Assembly: GCA_000827205.1 (NCBI GenBank)
Contig: KN832561.1
Span: forward strand, 815,446-879,445
Reading direction: 5' to 3'
From: Plicaturopsis crispa FD-325 SS-3
Taxonomy: Eukaryota > Basidiomycota > Agaricomycetes > Amylocorticiales > Amylocorticiaceae
DNA length: 64,000 nucleotides
The position numbers and the translations under genes were made by a program. Positions 51,467 through 64,000 of the stretch are shown piece by piece; position 1 is the stretch's first letter; each line of letters starts with the position of its first letter. Below the pieces are notes generated by a model. It had not been told where the DNA came from, made no database searches, and saw only the letters and a list, made by a program, of their open reading frames with translations.

Positions 51467-53460
51467 GGCAGAGAGATTTTACCGCGGGACTGCCGCGCAG
51501 TGCCGCGCACCGGACCAAAATGCACTTTTGCACCAATCTAAGAACATTTTACCGGATGCCTGCATCTTATCCTACAATCTTGAAAGATTTCCCCTGATTT
51601 CTGTCGTATTTCACCCGAAACGCGCTCGACACCGTCAATCGTTGCCCATATCCTCGCTGTCCATATCCTCCTGTGCCTTCACCACCTACCTTGAGCCTGA
51701 CCTGGACACTACCTTCATCGTCCGGACCCTCTCAAGATGTTCTATCTTGCCACATGAAATGGTATGCGCGGCACTTGCTCGTCACTGGCGCGGCACTGCG
51801 CGGTAGTGGCGCGGCACTTGCGCGGTAATGGCGCGTCACTTGCGCGGTAATGGCCCGGGCGCGTCACTTGCGCGGCACTGCGCGGCACCTGCCCAACACT
51901 GCATGGACCGTCCATGCATTCATTGGCCCACGAACTCGTCAAAAGATAGGTCGACGCTGTAGTATATCGTCGCGGCGGAGCATCGACTACACACGCGGCT
52001 CAAGTGCAGATGACCCGCTGTGAGCTGTGTACTCGGAGGCGGCATCACAGGCACTCAGGACATCCTCGCATTCATGATGCAGGGCACCATAAGGGACTAT
52101 CATGTGTGAGTGCATTTGCCATGCTAGCAAATGTGTCACTTATATTCTCATGCTTAAGTAGCAGACTCTCGTAACGACGCACTAGCACAACCAATCCCAC
52201 CACGGACCCTACTCACTCACCCTGACACGCAAAGAACCTTCATCGTCGTGAGTTTTGGGTCGAAGAAGGACTTGATTGCAGGTCCTTCCATAGATATCTC
52301 CAGGATATCTCCAATGTGGTCCATGAGTTTCTCATGTGTCGTGCGTAAACGCTTAAACTCACACATATAATACCTACAAACTTCTTGTGTCCGTTGGACC
52401 ATATGTACTCTGTACGTTGTACTATACTCTGTACCGAATACATATTTTTCTATGTCCTGACAGATGCTTGCCTCCCTGAAGTTGACCCGCTGCCTATGTA
52501 CCACTAGTAGGCCAGAAAATATGCCGCTAAACATGCTATGACACTGTGCTCTGTGGCTGCGGAGGTGCACTTGCCCAGTTCGATAATGTCAGGTAAGCGA
52601 TAAGTGATTTGTTCAGAGGTACATAAGCACAGTATGATATAAGTACACACATCCAGCAGGTGCAGGCAGCAGTGCCGTGAGCCTATCATCTGCGAGACTG
52701 CGACAACTCCGTGCACCACCGTGGCATTGAGTCTATCCTACGGAACGATGTGGGCGTGTGACCGTGCTCTATCAAGAGCATCACGCGCGGACAGCAGGCA
52801 TCTACTGTAAGCCTCCGAGCGGCGAACACTTCCTTGAGTATCTTGGAGGACACGGGGGTGCTGAAGCAAACACAGTGGTATTGATGTACATATAATACAT
52901 AGTCTGCAATCGACGACACGTTGTAGGTTTGGGTGAAGTGAAAACAGTCTGAAGCTCACCATCTATCCAATCCGTCCAGCTGTCCCTGGTCCGCACGTCC
53001 CGCACAGCGCACCCTCCTCTGGCCCCTGGGAGCACATCACAACGCCTGCGTAGGCGAGCATGGTGTTGGGGCCAGAATCCGGTTGACATTCAGTCGCGGA
53101 AGTTGATAGCACATAGAAGTTGAATCCGAGAACGCGAGAGGCATTGCGAGTGTAGATGATGATGAGGAGAGCAAGGTCTCTGCAGCGAGAAGATACGGGA
53201 ATGAAAGAGGTCCCGCCAGTCCAGCGATACTATACAACGGTGCACCGGATATGGTGTCCAAGCCGTTGTCAATGTTATGTGCGGAGGAGAATGTCCTTAC
53301 GGACTCAGCGCCATAGTAAACGCAGGAAAGGATGTTGCAGGAGCTGGGAGAGGTTGGGGTGAGAGGATGATGGACGCAGACAAGATGCGCGGCAGTCAGT
53401 CGACCAGCGCGGTAATGCGCGGCAGTCGCGGCAGTGGCGCGGCATTTTACACCTGCCCCC
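51467..53460. mobile_element. Non-autonomous DNA transposon, KDZ/Zisupton-like, with 8-bp target duplication
   Basis: A 1,994-base element is flanked by the direct repeat ATCGGAAG at 51459-51466 and 53461-53468. Its ends are inverted relatives. The left end reads GGCAGAGAGATTTTACCGCG, then GACTGCCGCGCAG. The right end, read inward, is GGGGGCAGGTGTAAAATGCC, then GCGCCACTGCCGCG. Many subterminal copies of GCGCGGCAGT and GCGCGGTAAT words lie near the right end and at 51766-51894. An 8-bp duplication, GGGGCAG-type ends and such subterminal repeats resemble the Kyakuja-Dileera-Zisupton group as I recall it (inference). Inside I find only short frames and no transposase motif, so it would depend on a full element elsewhere. 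The right end lies 41 bases before the COA8 start codon. Confidence 0.75.
51766..51894. repeat. GC-rich subterminal repeat cluster inside the transposon
   Basis: About eight degenerate copies of a GCGCGG(C/T)A(C/G)T-type word lie here, in the orientation seen at the element's right end (53384-53444). The block closes with GCGGCACCTGCCC, which resembles the right terminal sequence. Confidence 0.7.
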
Positions 53461-58131: not shown

Positions 58132-59290
58132 TGTCGAAGCGGGAGATGTGTCGCTAAATAACAAGTTTTTATCTTTCCAAAGACCTCCGTCAGATGTGTA
58201 TTTTCGCTCTGTTTAGGGTATCAAATTTTATGGACGAATTCCTTTACTGTAGGCGTCTCGGCGAGTGGTAAAGCAGCGAAAGTCTGAAGACGGAGATTGG
58301 TGGCTGCGTGCAAGTGTGGCTGAACAGTGAAAATGCGCCTTCCCCATATTTGCTGTTGTTTGGCATCGGCGTGCAATCGAAATCACCGCTACTCAACGCC
58401 ATCCATCACCGTTTTGATTCTTGACGACTTCCCCTGCTGCTTTTGTAATGGCTTTTGATTTGGAGGCTTTATCTCTAATTGCAACACGGCTTTTCAGTGT
58501 GCTACTACTACCGTGACTATCAGCAAGTTAGCTAATTCAGCGCGGAGTGTATACACGGCGCGAGCTTTCGCTGTGTATGTTCGTCCATCTTTCATCGCGT
58601 TTTTTAGCTAAATGCCCCACTTCTTCAGCTGTATACTCAGCGGAAACTTGAAACAGTGCTTGGCACTTGAGCCACGCTCTTTCGTTCTCTTTTGTGGAGC
58701 TGGTCGACGTGACAGACGCGTCGAGCGCGATACAAATGCGGCAGAGCTCGGCGCTCATCAGTCGCTTCCGCAATCGTTGATGGGATGATTACAACTGTTG
58801 CAAGTGCAACCGCCCGGAGGTGATGATGCCAAAACCACGACCTGATGCCTTCACGGTATGATACGCATCCCCGCAAAGCCGTACTTCCCTCACAACGACT
58901 AGCATGCCGGGCGCTGACGGTCGGACCCCAAACCACCAGGACCCCAAAACGACGGCGTTGGAGTGGGTCGAATGAACTTACAGAATGGAGGTAAGGCTGA
59001 TGGTGGTCTATCTAGGAGACGCTAGAAGGAAATGGGTCATGCTGTCGCAATTCAGCCAAGTGCAACGCTGCCCGGGTCGCAAACTATAAAGGATGGGCAT
59101 CTGTCTGTTCGTTTTCCTCAGCAGCGCTCCACCTTCGTTCTTTCTCACTCAACTTCAAGGGTACCGGTTACCTCCACTTTCTACAGTCTCTCTTTGGTCG
59201 CAGCACTTCCCACTCCTTCACGTCAATCTTTTCACGCCCCACGAATAACTTCCCAACTCTACCTTCCCAATCAAGTTTAAATCTATCAAA
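58132..59290. promoter_or_regulatory. Divergent region with TATA box of the secreted repeat protein
   Basis: This 1.16-kb spacer lies between the PRCC-like gene (-) and the secreted repeat gene (+). A TATAAA lies at 59085-59090, followed by a pyrimidine-rich stretch (59105-59150) and the start codon about 200 bases on, which suggests strong, regulated expression. The part at 58200-58980 holds no supported gene. Confidence 0.55.
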
Positions 59291-60548
59291 ATGGTTAACC
59301 AGAAGACTTCCTCCGCCGTCGCCCTCGCCGTCGCTCTCAGCGCCGTTGCACCTTCCCTCGCAGCGCCCATTGTGTGAGTTTCTCAGACATATTTCGGTGC
59401 TGGGATATAGCTCTAATACAATGTTACTGTTCTAGCGCCGCCCCCGGCACGAACTTCCACGTCCCCACCTTCAACGGAGCACCCGTCGGCGCACCCGCCG
59501 TCGGCGGTATCCGCCCCGTCAGCTTGAACGCGCAGCGCGGCCTCGGCTCGACCATCGCCAAGGGCGCCGGAGGCGGAGCTGCCAGCGCAGTGCTCGGCCA
59601 GGGCGTCCAGCTCCTCAAGGGCCTCCTCAGCCGTGACGTCGAGGAGCGCGCAGCTGCTGCAGCCAAGAGCTCGGGCAGCAAGGGCTCGGGCATCGGTGGC
59701 GACATCGCCAGCTCCGTCGCCGGTGGCGCCGCGAACGCTGCGGTCACCCAGGGCATTGAGGCCATCAAGGGCCTCTTCGCCCGTGAGCTCGAGCTTGAGC
59801 TTGAGGCGCGCGCAACTGCGGCCAAGAGCTCGGGCAGCAAGGGCTCTGGCATTGGTGGCGACATCGCAAGCTCCGTCGCCGGTGGTGCCGCGAACGCTGC
59901 GGTCACTCAGGGCATTGAGGCCATCAAGGGTCTCTTCAGCCGTGAGCTCGAGCTCGAGCTCCAGGCGCGCGCAGCGGCCGCAGCGAAGAGCTCGGGCAGC
60001 AAGGGCTCTGGCATCGGCGGCGACATCGCCAGCTCCGTCGCCGGCGGTGCCGCCAACGCGGCCGTCACCCAGGGCATCGAAGCCATCAAGGGCCTCTTCG
60101 CCCGTGAGCTCGAGCTTGAGCTTGAGGCGCGCGCAACTGCGGCCAAGAGCTCGGGCAGCAAGGGCTCGGGCATCGGTGGCGACATCGCCAGCTCCGTCGC
60201 CGGTGGTGCCGCGAACGCTGCGGTCACCCAGGGCATCGAGGCCATCAAGGGCCTCTTCGCCCGTGAGCTCGAGCTTGAACTCGAGGCGCGCGCAACTGCC
60301 GCGAAGAGCTCTGGCAGCAAGGGCTCTGGCATCGGCGGTGACATCGCCAGCTCCGTCGCCGGCGGTGCTGCGAACGCGGCCGTCACCCAAGGAATTGAGG
60401 CCATCAAGGGCCTCTTCGCCCGTGAGCTCGAGCTCGAGCTTGAGGCGCGCGCAACTGCGGCCAAGAGCTCTGGCAGCAAGGGCTCCGGCATCGGCGGCGA
60501 CATCGCCAGCTCCGTCGCCGGCGGTGCCGCCAACGCGGCCGTCACCCA
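59291..60548 (+). CDS. Secreted modular repeat protein, gap-truncated copy
   Basis: This begins with the same protein as the copy at 60964: signal peptide MVNQKTSSAVALAVALSAVA, intron 59374-59435, then repeats. By eye, bases 59288-60206 are identical to 60961-61879, intron included; after that small differences start. It has at least six modules of the SSGSKGSGIGGDIASSVAGG kind before running into undetermined bases. It is either a second, nearly identical gene or, more likely, the end of a contig from the same locus or the other haplotype. The first gap in this window shows the same restart pattern. Confidence 0.6.
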
Positions 60549-60960
60549 NNNNNNNNNNNNNNNNNNNNNNNNNNNNNNNNNNNNNNNNNNNNNNNNNNNN
60601 NNNNNNNNNNNNNNNNNNNNNNNNNNNNNNNNNNNNNNNNNNNNNNNNNNNNNNNNNNNNNNNNNNNNNNNNNNNNNNNNNNNNNNNNNNNNNNNNNNNN
60701 NNNNNNNNNNNNNNNNNNNNNNNNNNNNNNNNNNNNNNNNNNNNNNNNNNNNNNNNNNNNNNNNNNNNNNNNNNNNNNNNNNNNNNNNNNNNNNNNNNNN
60801 NNNNNNNNNNNNNNNNNNNNNNNNNNNNNNNNNNNNNNNNNNNNNNNNNNNNNNNNNNNNNNNNNNNNNNNNNNNNNNNNNNNNNNNNNNNNNNNNNNNN
60901 NNNNNNNNNNNNNNNNNNNNNNNNNNNNNNNNNNNNNNNNNNNNNNNNNNNNNNNNNNNN
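60549..60960. other. Assembly gap (412 N)
   Basis: This is a run of 412 undetermined bases inside repetitive coding DNA. The sequence after it restarts four bases before the gene's own ATG context. Confidence 0.95.
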
Positions 60961-60963
60961 AAA

Positions 60964-62438
60964 ATGGTTAACCAGAAGACTTCCTCCGCCGTCGCCCTCG
61001 CCGTCGCTCTCAGCGCCGTTGCACCTTCCCTCGCAGCGCCCATTGTGTGAGTTTCTCAGACATATTTCGGTGCTGGGATATAGCTCTAATACAATGTTAC
61101 TGTTCTAGCGCCGCCCCCGGCACGAACTTCCACGTCCCCACCTTCAACGGAGCACCCGTCGGCGCACCCGCCGTCGGCGGTATCCGCCCCGTCAGCTTGA
61201 ACGCGCAGCGCGGCCTCGGCTCGACCATCGCCAAGGGCGCCGGAGGCGGAGCTGCCAGCGCAGTGCTCGGCCAGGGCGTCCAGCTCCTCAAGGGCCTCCT
61301 CAGCCGTGACGTCGAGGAGCGCGCAGCTGCTGCAGCCAAGAGCTCGGGCAGCAAGGGCTCGGGCATCGGTGGCGACATCGCCAGCTCCGTCGCCGGTGGC
61401 GCCGCGAACGCTGCGGTCACCCAGGGCATTGAGGCCATCAAGGGCCTCTTCGCCCGTGAGCTCGAGCTTGAGCTTGAGGCGCGCGCAACTGCGGCCAAGA
61501 GCTCGGGCAGCAAGGGCTCTGGCATTGGTGGCGACATCGCAAGCTCCGTCGCCGGTGGTGCCGCGAACGCTGCGGTCACTCAGGGCATTGAGGCCATCAA
61601 GGGTCTCTTCAGCCGTGAGCTCGAGCTCGAGCTCCAGGCGCGCGCAGCGGCCGCAGCGAAGAGCTCGGGCAGCAAGGGCTCTGGCATCGGCGGCGACATC
61701 GCCAGCTCCGTCGCCGGCGGTGCCGCCAACGCGGCCGTCACCCAGGGCATCGAAGCCATCAAGGGCCTCTTCGCCCGTGAGCTCGAGCTTGAGCTTGAGG
61801 CGCGCGCAACTGCGGCCAAGAGCTCGGGCAGCAAGGGCTCGGGCATCGGTGGCGACATCGCCAGCTCCGTCGCCGGTGGCGCCGCGAACGCTGCGGTTAC
61901 CCAAGGAATTGAGGCGGTCAAGGGCCTCTTCAGCCGCGAGCCCGAACCCGGTGTCGGCTCGACCATCGCCAAGGGCGCCGGAGGCGGAGCTGCCAGCGCA
62001 GTGCTCGGCCAGGGGGTCCAGCTCCTACAGGGCCTCTTCAGCCGTGAGCTCGAGCTCGAGCTTGAAGCGCGTGCGACCGCTGCGAAGAGCTCGGGCAGCA
62101 AGGGCTCGGGCATCGGTGGTGACATCGCCAGCTCCGTCGCCGGTGGTGCTGCGAACGCGGCCGTCACCCAGGGCATCGAAGCCATCAAGGGCCTTTTCGC
62201 CCGTGAGCTCGAGGCGCGCGCAGCGGCCGCAGCAAAGAGCTCTGGCAGCAAGGGCTCTGGCATCGGTGGCGACATCGCTGGCTCCGTCGCAGGTGGCGCC
62301 GCGAACGCAGCCGTTACTCAAGGCATCCAGGCCATCGAGGGCCTCTTCAGCCGCGAATTCGCCGGGTATGTTCCACTCATCTCATCTTCTATTCAACTTA
62401 CTGACCATTCTTTCTGCAGCCTTAACGAACTTGACTAA
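60964..62438 (+). CDS. Secreted protein of about 53-residue Gly/Ala-rich repeats, complete copy
   Basis: No family is recognised. Exons 60964-61046, 61109-62365 and 62420-62438 encode 452 residues. A signal peptide (MVNQKTSSAVALAVALSAVA, then PSLAAP) leads to a short linker and eight modules. The generic module is GIGGDIASSVAGGAANAAVT, then QGIEAIKGLFARELELELEA, then RATAAKSSGSKGS, 53 residues in all. Each has a small-residue-rich hydrophobic stretch, an acidic Glu/Leu run, and a Ser/Gly/Lys linker. Two modules are of a distinct lead type (GSTIAKGAGGGAASAVLGQG), one first and one in the middle, suggesting an older block duplication. No cysteine and no Lys-Arg pairs occur, so Kex2 processing is not obvious. 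It ends FAGLNELD after a short last exon. Possible roles are a wall, matrix or surface-active protein (guess). Confidence 0.8.
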
Positions 62439-63557
62439 ACGATTATCGGAAGGATTTAATTTGGGTTTTTATTACTATCATTCGGGCTTTGGACTGCATT
62501 GTTAGGGACTTGGGACACGGGCCCAGGATGACTTGTAGACTCACGAAGGAGCTTTGATCATGTACTCTGGTCTTGGCTTCATCGGAATGGCATCATCCCT
62601 TGATTTCTCGATATATTTTCTGTGTGTTCCCTTGAGGCTCCTCGAAGACGCTTTCGTCGCGGATTCTGGAATCTGGCCTAAGGCCTTGTGTTCGTAAGTA
62701 ACCAGACACTAACCAGACGCGTTTTCGCCGCGCAAGTGGGGATCGTACATTGGGCTATATTACTTTTTCATTATGATTATGAAGGGAAAGTCCCCGAAGG
62801 ATTCGAGGAACCTTTTCTTATAATTTGTAGTGCGAACGGCTGGATTGTCTCTGGATCATAAATATTCTTGCAGTACAACATTCCTAGTACCTGCACTTCG
62901 GACCTGCTTTCCCGCTCGCACATAGGCATGTCGTACTTGTGCGAAACCGCGTAACTCACGACGCACGACCACCTTTCCACGCTGTGGCACGTACGCTAGT
63001 GTTGCGGTGTGTCGCACGCATCCGACGTAGACGCGAGTATCCCTCCCTCCTCCGATGCGGGCATGCTCATGGACGGGCGAAGATGTCTCCACAGGGCAGC
63101 GTGTTTCCACAGGTTGGAGTTGGCGGCGTCGGGCGTGGGGAGGCAAAGGCACGATCAGCCGTCGCAGGCGCCGATGCAGAGTGAGGACGGCTGGCGCTAC
63201 GGGGACGGGCACAGGGCACACTGTGGGGCCGTAGCCGTAAGATAGGACACGATGTTATGTCGCCGTCAACATCTATCAAGTCATTCGAAGCGGACGCGCG
63301 AAGACACGTCGATCGAATCCAAACACGTCGGCCGAACGAGGACAGGGAGCGGTGGCGCGAGGATGTATACCGAGAGGGTGTCAGCGGCGTGCAAACCCGC
63401 GAATCGTCGCGTACATTGTCGTCATGGTGCACCGCGCATACACCTTCGTGCACCGTGCCCACACCTTCATGACGCGCCCGCGTGGACAGGGAAGAAGGTA
63501 CGGGGACAGGCGACACATTTGGTAGCATGTGCGAGCGACGCATCTGTCAGCAGTGAC
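62439..63557. other. Intergenic, no gene seen
   Basis: This 1.1-kb stretch follows the secreted repeat gene. Frames on both strands lack family features. GC content rises from about 62940 toward the minisatellite. Confidence 0.5.
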
Positions 63558-64000
63558 GGGATGCGTTTGCGAGCAGGGATAGGCGATGCGTCTGCGAGAA
63601 GGGACGGGCGATGCATCTACCAGCAGCCAGGACAGCCGGCACGTTGTGCGAGCAGGGGCGAGGGCATGCGTTTGCGAGCAAGGACCGTCGATGTATGTGC
63701 GAGCAGGGACCGTCGATGTGTGTGCGAGCAACGACAGGAGATGCGTCTGCCAGGAGAGACCGGGTATGTGTCCGTGAGCAGAAATGGGGATGCGTCCGCG
63801 AGTAGGAACGGGAGATGCGTCTGCAAGCGACTAGGGCGTCTGGCAGGCACGGACGGGCGTGTCTGCTAGCAACTGACCCACTTGGCAGAGACGGAGGCAT
63901 CTGCGGCCAGCGACGGACGCGTTTGCAAGCAACGACGGACAGCGCATTTGGGCCGTCTCTGCGAGCACGTACGCAGGAATTTCGGGGTAGGCTGGCATTT
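63558..64000. repeat. Degenerate minisatellite, about 25-bp unit
   Basis: A unit close to GATGCGTCTGCGAGCAGGGA followed by CGGGC recurs about every 24-26 bases, clearest at 63558-63830 and more degraded toward the window edge, where it may continue. The repeat produces open but meaningless frames on both strands because its length is often not a multiple of three. Confidence 0.75.

What the first reader, a model, noticed from the sequence alone, without database searches (positions are those of the whole stretch)
60964..62438. Secreted protein made of eight near-identical Gly/Ala-rich modules with no recognised family
Seen: a signal peptide, then modules of about 53 residues with a hydrophobic small-residue stretch (GIGGDIASSVAGGAANAAVT), an amphipathic GIEAIKGLF segment, a Glu/Leu run and a Ser/Gly/Lys linker. 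Two modules are of a lead type that reappears mid-protein, so unit and block duplications both occurred. Inference: it could be a precursor of many similar amphipathic peptides, or a surface or matrix protein. The lack of Lys-Arg pairs argues against standard Kex2 processing. A TATA box suggests strong regulated expression.
Basis: partly seen in the sequence, partly recalled or inferred. Interest (0 to 1): 0.75.

Follow-up and report, generated by a model that had tools for sequence, protein, structure and literature searches.

The report
Fungal multi-peptide precursor with shared promoter
A fungal gene encodes a secreted chain of near-identical helical peptides that looks built to be cut apart at single arginines, and a matching three-part promoter lies before about seventeen other secreted-protein genes of the same genome, which hints at a coordinated peptide-secretion programme.

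Summary
The repeat is real: 452 aa, eight modules, no Pfam match. But the ORF starts 3 bp after a 412-bp assembly gap, and 919 bp (intron included) recur without a mismatch left of the gap. The promoter belongs to that left copy, so this is one split gene, two alleles, or a fresh duplicate.

Seven paralogues with 9-14 modules each lie in the same genome (88 modules in all), plus two distant relatives. In the eight genes 167 of 177 arginines carry L/I/V/F three residues earlier (22% by composition): LxxR, the expanded Kex2 motif. Some paralogues have RR at the same borders. Weakly cationic cores alternate with short acidic spacers, so the protein reads as a precursor cut mostly at single arginines into helical peptides of about 30-45 residues.

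Unexpectedly, all eight share TATA, ~34 bp, CAGC[A/T]GCGCTC; GGTAC follows in seven. Genome-wide I found this promoter before 17 secreted genes: nine of the module family and eight with other cargo, seven of these with Kex-type sites. An eighteenth, found by module similarity, has a variant. Cutting and co-expression are inferred; function is open, hyphal-surface peptides like Ustilago repellents being my best guess.

The parts
59085..59090 (+). TATAAA box of the left copy
   Evidence: 34 bp before CAGCAGCGCTC
59118..59129 (+). TCAGCAGCGCTC, initiator-like shared promoter element (distance from TATA suggests the transcription start, inferred)
59160..59172 (+). GGTACCGGTTACC, third shared promoter/5'UTR element
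59291..59373 (+). left copy, exon 1: signal peptide ending SLAAP
   Evidence: signal peptide judged by eye
59374..59435 (+). left copy, phase-2 intron, 62 bp
59436..60548 (+). left copy, exon 2: six modules and part of a seventh, cut by the gap
60549..60960 (.). assembly gap (412 N)
60961..61879 (+). 919 bp identical to 59288-60206, intron included
60964..61046 (+). right copy (the finding), exon 1
61047..61108 (+). right copy, phase-2 intron
61109..62365 (+). right copy, exon 2: pro-region and eight modules (ends at 61307, 61457, 61616, 61778, 61937, 62045, 62204, 62354)
61938..62045 (+). second lead-type module (EPEPGVGSTIAKGAGGG...LFSR); EPEP reads as a Ste13-type dipeptide spacer (inferred)
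62366..62419 (+). right copy, second intron
62420..62438 (+). right copy, exon 3: tail LNELD and stop

Best explanation
The gene encodes a Kex2-type multi-peptide precursor. The chain enters the secretory pathway (signal peptide ending AAP), a kexin cuts after the Arg of [L/I/V]xxR on both sides of each short acidic spacer (LFSR|ELELELEAR|ATAAK...), a carboxypeptidase would trim the C-terminal Arg, and each chain yields about eight peptides of 30-45 residues: a flexible Ser/Gly/Lys tail followed by one continuous helix rich in Gly/Ala, ending in an amphipathic GIQAIEGLF-like segment. It belongs to a family of at least eight such genes, expressed (inferred) together with other, differently built secreted precursors through a shared TATA / CAGCWGCGCTC / GGTAC promoter. 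Shown by sequence: module architecture, motif enrichment, RR at such borders in some paralogues, a kexin gene in the genome, the shared promoter. Inferred: cleavage, trimming, co-expression. The released peptides most likely coat or condition the hyphal surface or its surroundings, as Rep1 peptides do in Ustilago; this last step is the weakest (about 0.35).
For: Eight genes (8 modules here, 9-14 in the others), all Cys- and Trp-free, same first-exon layout and a C-terminal [DN][ED]L[DN] tail. 167 of 177 Arg with L/I/V/F at P4 against 21.7% background; 64 of 71 distinct 9-residue contexts. RR in C6b (14: 13 LFRR, 1 VVRR), C5a (5) and C6a (3), no KR in any of the eight. In this gene six standard cores carry net +1 to +2 (Arg included) and the spacers -1 to -3; the second lead-type module is 0. 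Core pN/pS 0.33 between paralogues, uncorrected for saturation, on the 83 modules that fit a fixed pattern. Isolated module predicted as one helix, residues 14-50, mean pLDDT 83.3, 92-95 in its middle. One kexin P-domain hit; catalytic and membrane parts of that gene judged by eye. Promoter: TATA plus element at 15 distinct sites against 2 for the reversed pattern; 14 of the 15 precede a signal-peptide-like ORF. GGTAC, no criterion there, in 12 of these 14 against 0 of 29 element sites without TATA. Reciprocal search TATA..GGTACNGGYTACC, element not asked for: 6 distinct sites, all six carry it, control 1. Literature: LxxR as expanded Kex2 motif (PMC8528282, passages); products ending at single Arg when agaricomycete KEPs are expressed in Pichia (PMC9769878, passages).
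Against: No transcript, peptide or cleavage data. Most borders have Ser, Ala or Glu at P2, not the preferred Lys/Arg; uncut or partly cut protein is possible. A periodic helical protein with Arg at helix ends would also show regular Arg spacing. The element alone is not enriched (46 sites, control 40). Nine of the 17 promoter genes are one homologous family, so part of the sharing is descent, and three of the other eight were found with GGTAC as a criterion. C13x shows no repeats or Kex-type sites in my truncated model, and the site at C11:721447 precedes no intact gene. Two hydrophobin matches exist, so replacement of hydrophobins as in Ustilago is not shown.
Confidence: 0.72

Rival explanations
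1. The protein is not cut. It is a secreted repetitive structural protein of the wall or matrix, modules forming a string of helices that pack through Gly/Ala faces.
For: Modules are long for signalling peptides; one helix per module in the 418-aa model (but mean pLDDT only 42); no dibasic site in this gene.
Against: Nearly every Arg sits in LxxR, at spacer borders; three paralogues have RR there; spacers vary in length (0 to 14 residues, longer inserts in C8b) while the core is fixed; seven promoter partners carry KR, RR or KKR sites.
Confidence: 0.2
2. A multi-peptide precursor whose products are membrane-active or antimicrobial peptides aimed at competitors, like tandem amphibian skin-peptide precursors (recalled) or other fungal linear peptides.
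For: Signal peptide, tandem cores, acidic spacers, GIG start and helical prediction; standard cores weakly cationic here; the PMC9769878 abstract suggests a role in biotic interaction for KEP peptides.
Against: Cores in C13a and C6b are close to neutral by inspection; whole-core hydrophobic moment no higher than shuffles.
Confidence: 0.25
3. The two copies in the window are an assembly artefact (one gene split at a scaffold gap) or two alleles, and the eight-module count is unreliable.
For: 919 bp identical on both sides of a 412-N gap, then different module order; only one copy of the promoter is assembled.
Against: A very recent tandem duplication gives the same picture; gap size is only an estimate. 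Does not touch the family: the seven paralogues lie in fetched loci without N runs.
Confidence: 0.6
4. The shared promoter only reflects descent of all these genes from one ancestral precursor gene, not present-day co-regulation.
For: Exon-1 signal peptides look alike, a phase-2 intron follows in 15 of 17, and tails like [DN]EL[DN] recur.
Against: Among 10 representative genes (three of them from the module family) the stretches between the elements are only 0.32-0.34 identical while the elements persist, which points to selection on them; the element itself was a search criterion, so its 0.97 identity proves nothing.
Confidence: 0.3

Closest known systems
Kex2-processed repeat proteins (KEPs; Le Marquer 2019 PMC6339444, Umemura 2020 PMC7329392, Vogt 2022 PMC9769878)
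   Same: Signal peptide, tandem near-identical peptides, Kex-type sites between them; three paralogues have RR sites; XP dipeptides (EP, EPEP) after sites as in Ste13 signatures
   Different: This gene and four of its paralogues (C5b, C5c, C8b, C13a) have no KR/RR/KK, so both surveys, which ask for dibasic sites, should miss them; cores are longer than the 9-24 aa class reported as most abundant in Dikarya; a shared promoter is not mentioned in the parts I read
Ustilago maydis Rep1 repellent (PMC4617103, passages)
   Same: Twelve repeats of 34-55 aa, cut by Kex2 into 35-53-aa amphipathic peptides; same size and layout
   Different: No sequence comparison with Rep1 was made; here sites are mostly monobasic and a module is predicted helical, whereas Rep1 peptides form amyloid-like fibrils; here it is a family of eight genes
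Kex2-processed pro-domain effectors with LxxR sites (PMC8528282, passages)
   Same: LxxR as Kex2 motif, P4 Leu or other aliphatic, variable P2
   Different: There a single pro-domain is removed; here many sites would cut a polyprotein
Fungal hydrophobins (PF01185)
   Same: Possible role at the hyphal surface
   Different: No Cys at all; the genome has separate hydrophobin matches

Membership tests
KEP (published computational definition) | N-terminal secretion signal | tested here: met
   Hydrophobic N-terminus ending in a small-residue stretch and Pro (mostly AAP) in the family genes, by eye, no SignalP
KEP (published computational definition) | At least three tandem repeats of at least 8 aa, none above 100 aa | tested here: met
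   8-14 modules; 34-76 aa each after the first, which carries the leader
KEP (published computational definition) | Dibasic site (KR, RR, KK, RK) between repeats | tested here: not met
   0 in this gene, C5b, C5c, C13a; C8b has only two RK; RR 14 in C6b, 5 in C5a, 3 in C6a
KEP (by mechanism) | Cleavage of the repeats by a kexin | not testable with these tools
   LxxR enrichment and a kexin gene support it; no protein data
Rep1-type repellent | Repeats of 34-55 aa cut into small peptides | tested here: inconclusive
   Size fits; cutting not shown
[quoted passage not shown]
   -
Dikaritin/ustiloxin-type RiPP | UstYa (DUF3328) gene near the precursor | tested here: not met
   The 6 UstYa matches lie on C1, C4 and C10; no family or promoter gene lies on these contigs; the C4 chance site is 139 kb from the C4 match
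Any Pfam family | Score above the curated cut-off | tested here: not met
   This protein: 0 families at E<=1; a shortened C13a and C11: only matches below cut-off; 14 single modules: none

The most novel reading that the evidence does not exclude
This fungus runs a dedicated 'peptide-precursor cassette': one core promoter (TATA, initiator-like CAGCWGCGCTC, GGTACNGGYTACC-like element), a stereotyped signal-peptide exon and a phase-2 intron, fronting about 18 genes with hypervariable, mostly multi-peptide cargo and often a common C-terminal tail, much as venom and skin-peptide genes (recalled) keep a conserved leader and vary the cargo. The promoter would then allow such precursors, including monobasic ones that dibasic-site surveys should miss, to be found directly in genomes.
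Probability: 0.5. Interest if true: 0.82.

Novelty: new variant of a known kind. Interest (0 to 1): 0.66.

Why it matters
Fungal multi-peptide precursors have been surveyed by their dibasic sites, and most have no known function. A monobasic family of this size suggests that surveys undercount them, and a shared promoter, if it works as one, gives a testable handle on when and why a fungus releases these peptides together.

Tried and rejected
Homology outside the genome: no relative in bacterial/archaeal contigs, viral contigs, PDB sequences or Pfam; no fungal genome collection was available, so the spread of the family among fungi is untested. RiPP cyclisation cluster: no UstYa match near. 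Element alone as promoter mark: rejected, 46 sites against 40 in control. The 29 of 46 sites not yet explained were fetched and read: 0 of 29 have TATA at the right spacing (one TATAT 25 bp upstream in L049) and 0 of 29 have GGTAC within 80 nt; three ATGs (two in L037, one in L049) passed my crude hydrophobicity test, none begins a gene I could recognise. Element plus GGTAC without TATA: C4:1077498 precedes a non-secreted-looking ORF that resembles a histidine acid phosphatase (label recalled), taken as chance. TATAAA..GGTACTGG without the element: 7 sites, 5 in the set (C13b among them), 2 not, control 8, hence no evidence by itself. Whole-core amphipathicity: not above shuffles; the C-terminal segment depends on where it is cut (32 of 32 or 11 of 32). 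Model of the 418-residue exon product: mean pLDDT 42, not used. My crude gene-model script missed the second intron of C6a when tested on it, so the models of the eight genes with other cargo are rough. Naming the organism: one paper search found nothing; dropped. Paper searches on Kex2 repeats plus promoter motif and on agaricomycete secreted peptides plus hydrophobin: 0 papers each; on basidiomycete core promoters: 2 listed, not opened.

Full report
Observation. The finding's ORF is real and has the described parts. With two introns it gives a 452-aa protein with a signal-peptide-like start and eight modules, modules 1 and 6 of the lead type. TRF reports the 159-bp array on both sides of the gap.

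Assembly. The ORF begins 3 bp after 412 N. Bases 60961-61879 equal 59288-60206 exactly, intron included (919 bp), then the module order differs: the left copy runs on with standard modules, the right one has a variant module and then a second lead module. The only assembled promoter is left of the gap. One gene broken at a scaffold gap, two alleles of different module number, or a fresh tandem duplicate all fit; I favour the first two.

Family. DNA and module searches of the same assembly led to seven further genes, named here by contig: C6a, C6b, C5a, C5b, C5c, C8b, C13a, with 11, 14, 9, 11, 9, 13 and 13 modules, and two distant ones (C11, C13b). Splitting at module ends gives 88 modules in the eight genes. 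83 of the 88 fit the pattern G-x5-A-x4-G-x9-G-x6-L-[FL]-x-R, with 32 distinct cores; those positions are fixed by the pattern. Positions not fixed by it but nearly invariant in the 32 are G3 (30), G13 (30), A15 (31), A17 (30) and Q21 (30). pN/pS of these cores between genes is 0.33, uncorrected, so the core looks constrained while spacers and linkers vary in length.

Cutting sites. Of 177 Arg (last R of each pair, leader excluded) 167 have L, I, V or F three residues before; the background is 21.7%. Because modules repeat, I also counted distinct 9-residue contexts: 64 of 71. PMC8528282 (passages read) gives LxxR as the expanded Kex2 motif, with Leu or another aliphatic at P4 and a variable P2. 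In C6b, C5a and C6a some borders read RR. In this gene 14 of 16 Arg fit; the other two lie in the N-terminal pro-region. Acidic spacers of 5-9 residues alternate with cores of 44-45 residues; the second lead module carries EPEP instead. PMC9769878 (passages) reports products that seem to end at single Arg when C. cinerea KEPs are expressed in Pichia. The genome has one kexin P-domain match; its subtilisin and membrane parts I judged by eye.

Structure. One module alone is predicted as a helix from residue 14 to 50 with good confidence although no alignment was given. The exon product is not modelled reliably. Positions 19-30 of the core are amphipathic as a helix in 32 of 32 distinct cores, positions 20-30 in 11, the first 18 positions in 13, the whole core in 0. 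The cores are related, so these are not independent counts.

Promoter. Aligning the upstream regions of the eight genes and C11 showed TATA-type boxes 33-34 bp before CAGC[AT]GCGCTC, then GGTAC (8 of these 9; C5a has AGTAC), then ATG. TATA plus element occurs at 15 distinct sites in 33.2 Mb, against 2 for the reversed pattern. Nine are the family genes and C11. One (C11:721447) precedes no intact gene and looks, by eye, like a decayed copy. The other five precede secreted-looking ORFs with other cargo: C7x, C7y, C13x, C13y, C17x. Element plus GGTAC (16 sites, control 1) adds C3, C11z and C17z, again secreted-looking and with KR sites, and C4, which lacks TATA and a secretion signal. In the 17 genes a TATA-like box (TTTAAA and CATAAA allowed) lies 31-35 bp upstream in 17, GGTAC follows at +39 to +59 in 15 (for C3, C11z and C17z that was the search criterion), ATG at +141 to +192 in 17, and a phase-2 intron follows the signal-peptide exon in 15. 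Seven of the eight genes outside the module family show KR, RR or KKR sites in my rough models; C13x does not.

Checks against circularity. GGTAC was not used to find the first 14 genes: 12 of 14 have it, 0 of the 29 TATA-less element sites have it within 80 nt (Fisher 6e-9). Searching TATA..GGTACNGGYTACC without the element gives six distinct sites, each of which has the element; control 1. C13b, reached by a weak module match (E 0.036), has TATAAA, then CCAGCCGTGCTC (two letters off) at the same spacing, then GGTACTGG; the gene seems to end in LFRREFAADELD. TATA among element sites, 15 of 46 against 2 of 40 in control, gives p 0.002. Not in favour: the element alone is no more frequent than its control, and TATAAA..GGTACTGG alone is no more frequent than its control (7 against 8).

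Known or new. Both KEP surveys ask for dibasic sites (PMC7329392: abstract, detection section and first part of one results section read; PMC6339444: passages read), so this gene should escape them; C6b and C5a should not. A shared KEP promoter I saw nowhere; that rests on searches and on the passages opened, in an open-access library only. Function: two hydrophobin matches, one with a stop in its frame (a lower bound), leave room for a repellent-like role but do not show it.

Verdict. A new, mostly monobasic variant of fungal multi-peptide precursors, embedded in a promoter-defined gene set. Processing and co-expression are inferred and straightforward to test.

Noticed in passing
59288-62438: 919 bp repeated exactly on both sides of a 412-N gap, followed by different module orders; likely scaffold artefact or two alleles.
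   Followed up: partly
L015:2984-3520 (C11:721483 on): TATA plus element with no intact gene behind it, but a stretch like a decayed signal-peptide exon and donor site.
   Followed up: partly
L020:1-1979 and L016 (C13 about 423-426 kb, minus strand): Distant relative with modules split over several exons (..GLINSIKNHTSRASGGGGKGSG..) and a variant of the shared promoter.
   Followed up: partly
L018, L021, L025, L022, L024: Other secreted-looking precursors behind the same promoter, some Cys-containing with KKR sites, one with ALKREPEPEPF-like repeats; several promoter genes lie 2-30 kb from another one.
   Followed up: partly
C-terminal ends of family and promoter genes: Differently built precursors end in [DNQ]EL[DN] or close variants (DELD, NELN, QELD); C17x, C3 and C11z do not. 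Meaning unknown.
   Followed up: no
window 63535-63828: About 12 degenerate copies of a 25-bp unit downstream of the gene.
   Followed up: no
window 51765-51892: GC-rich 11/22/43-bp tandem repeat (GCGCGGCACTT).
   Followed up: no
L040 and L054: Identical 57 bp at the element on C6 and on small contig C41, probably a repeat or transposon.
   Followed up: no
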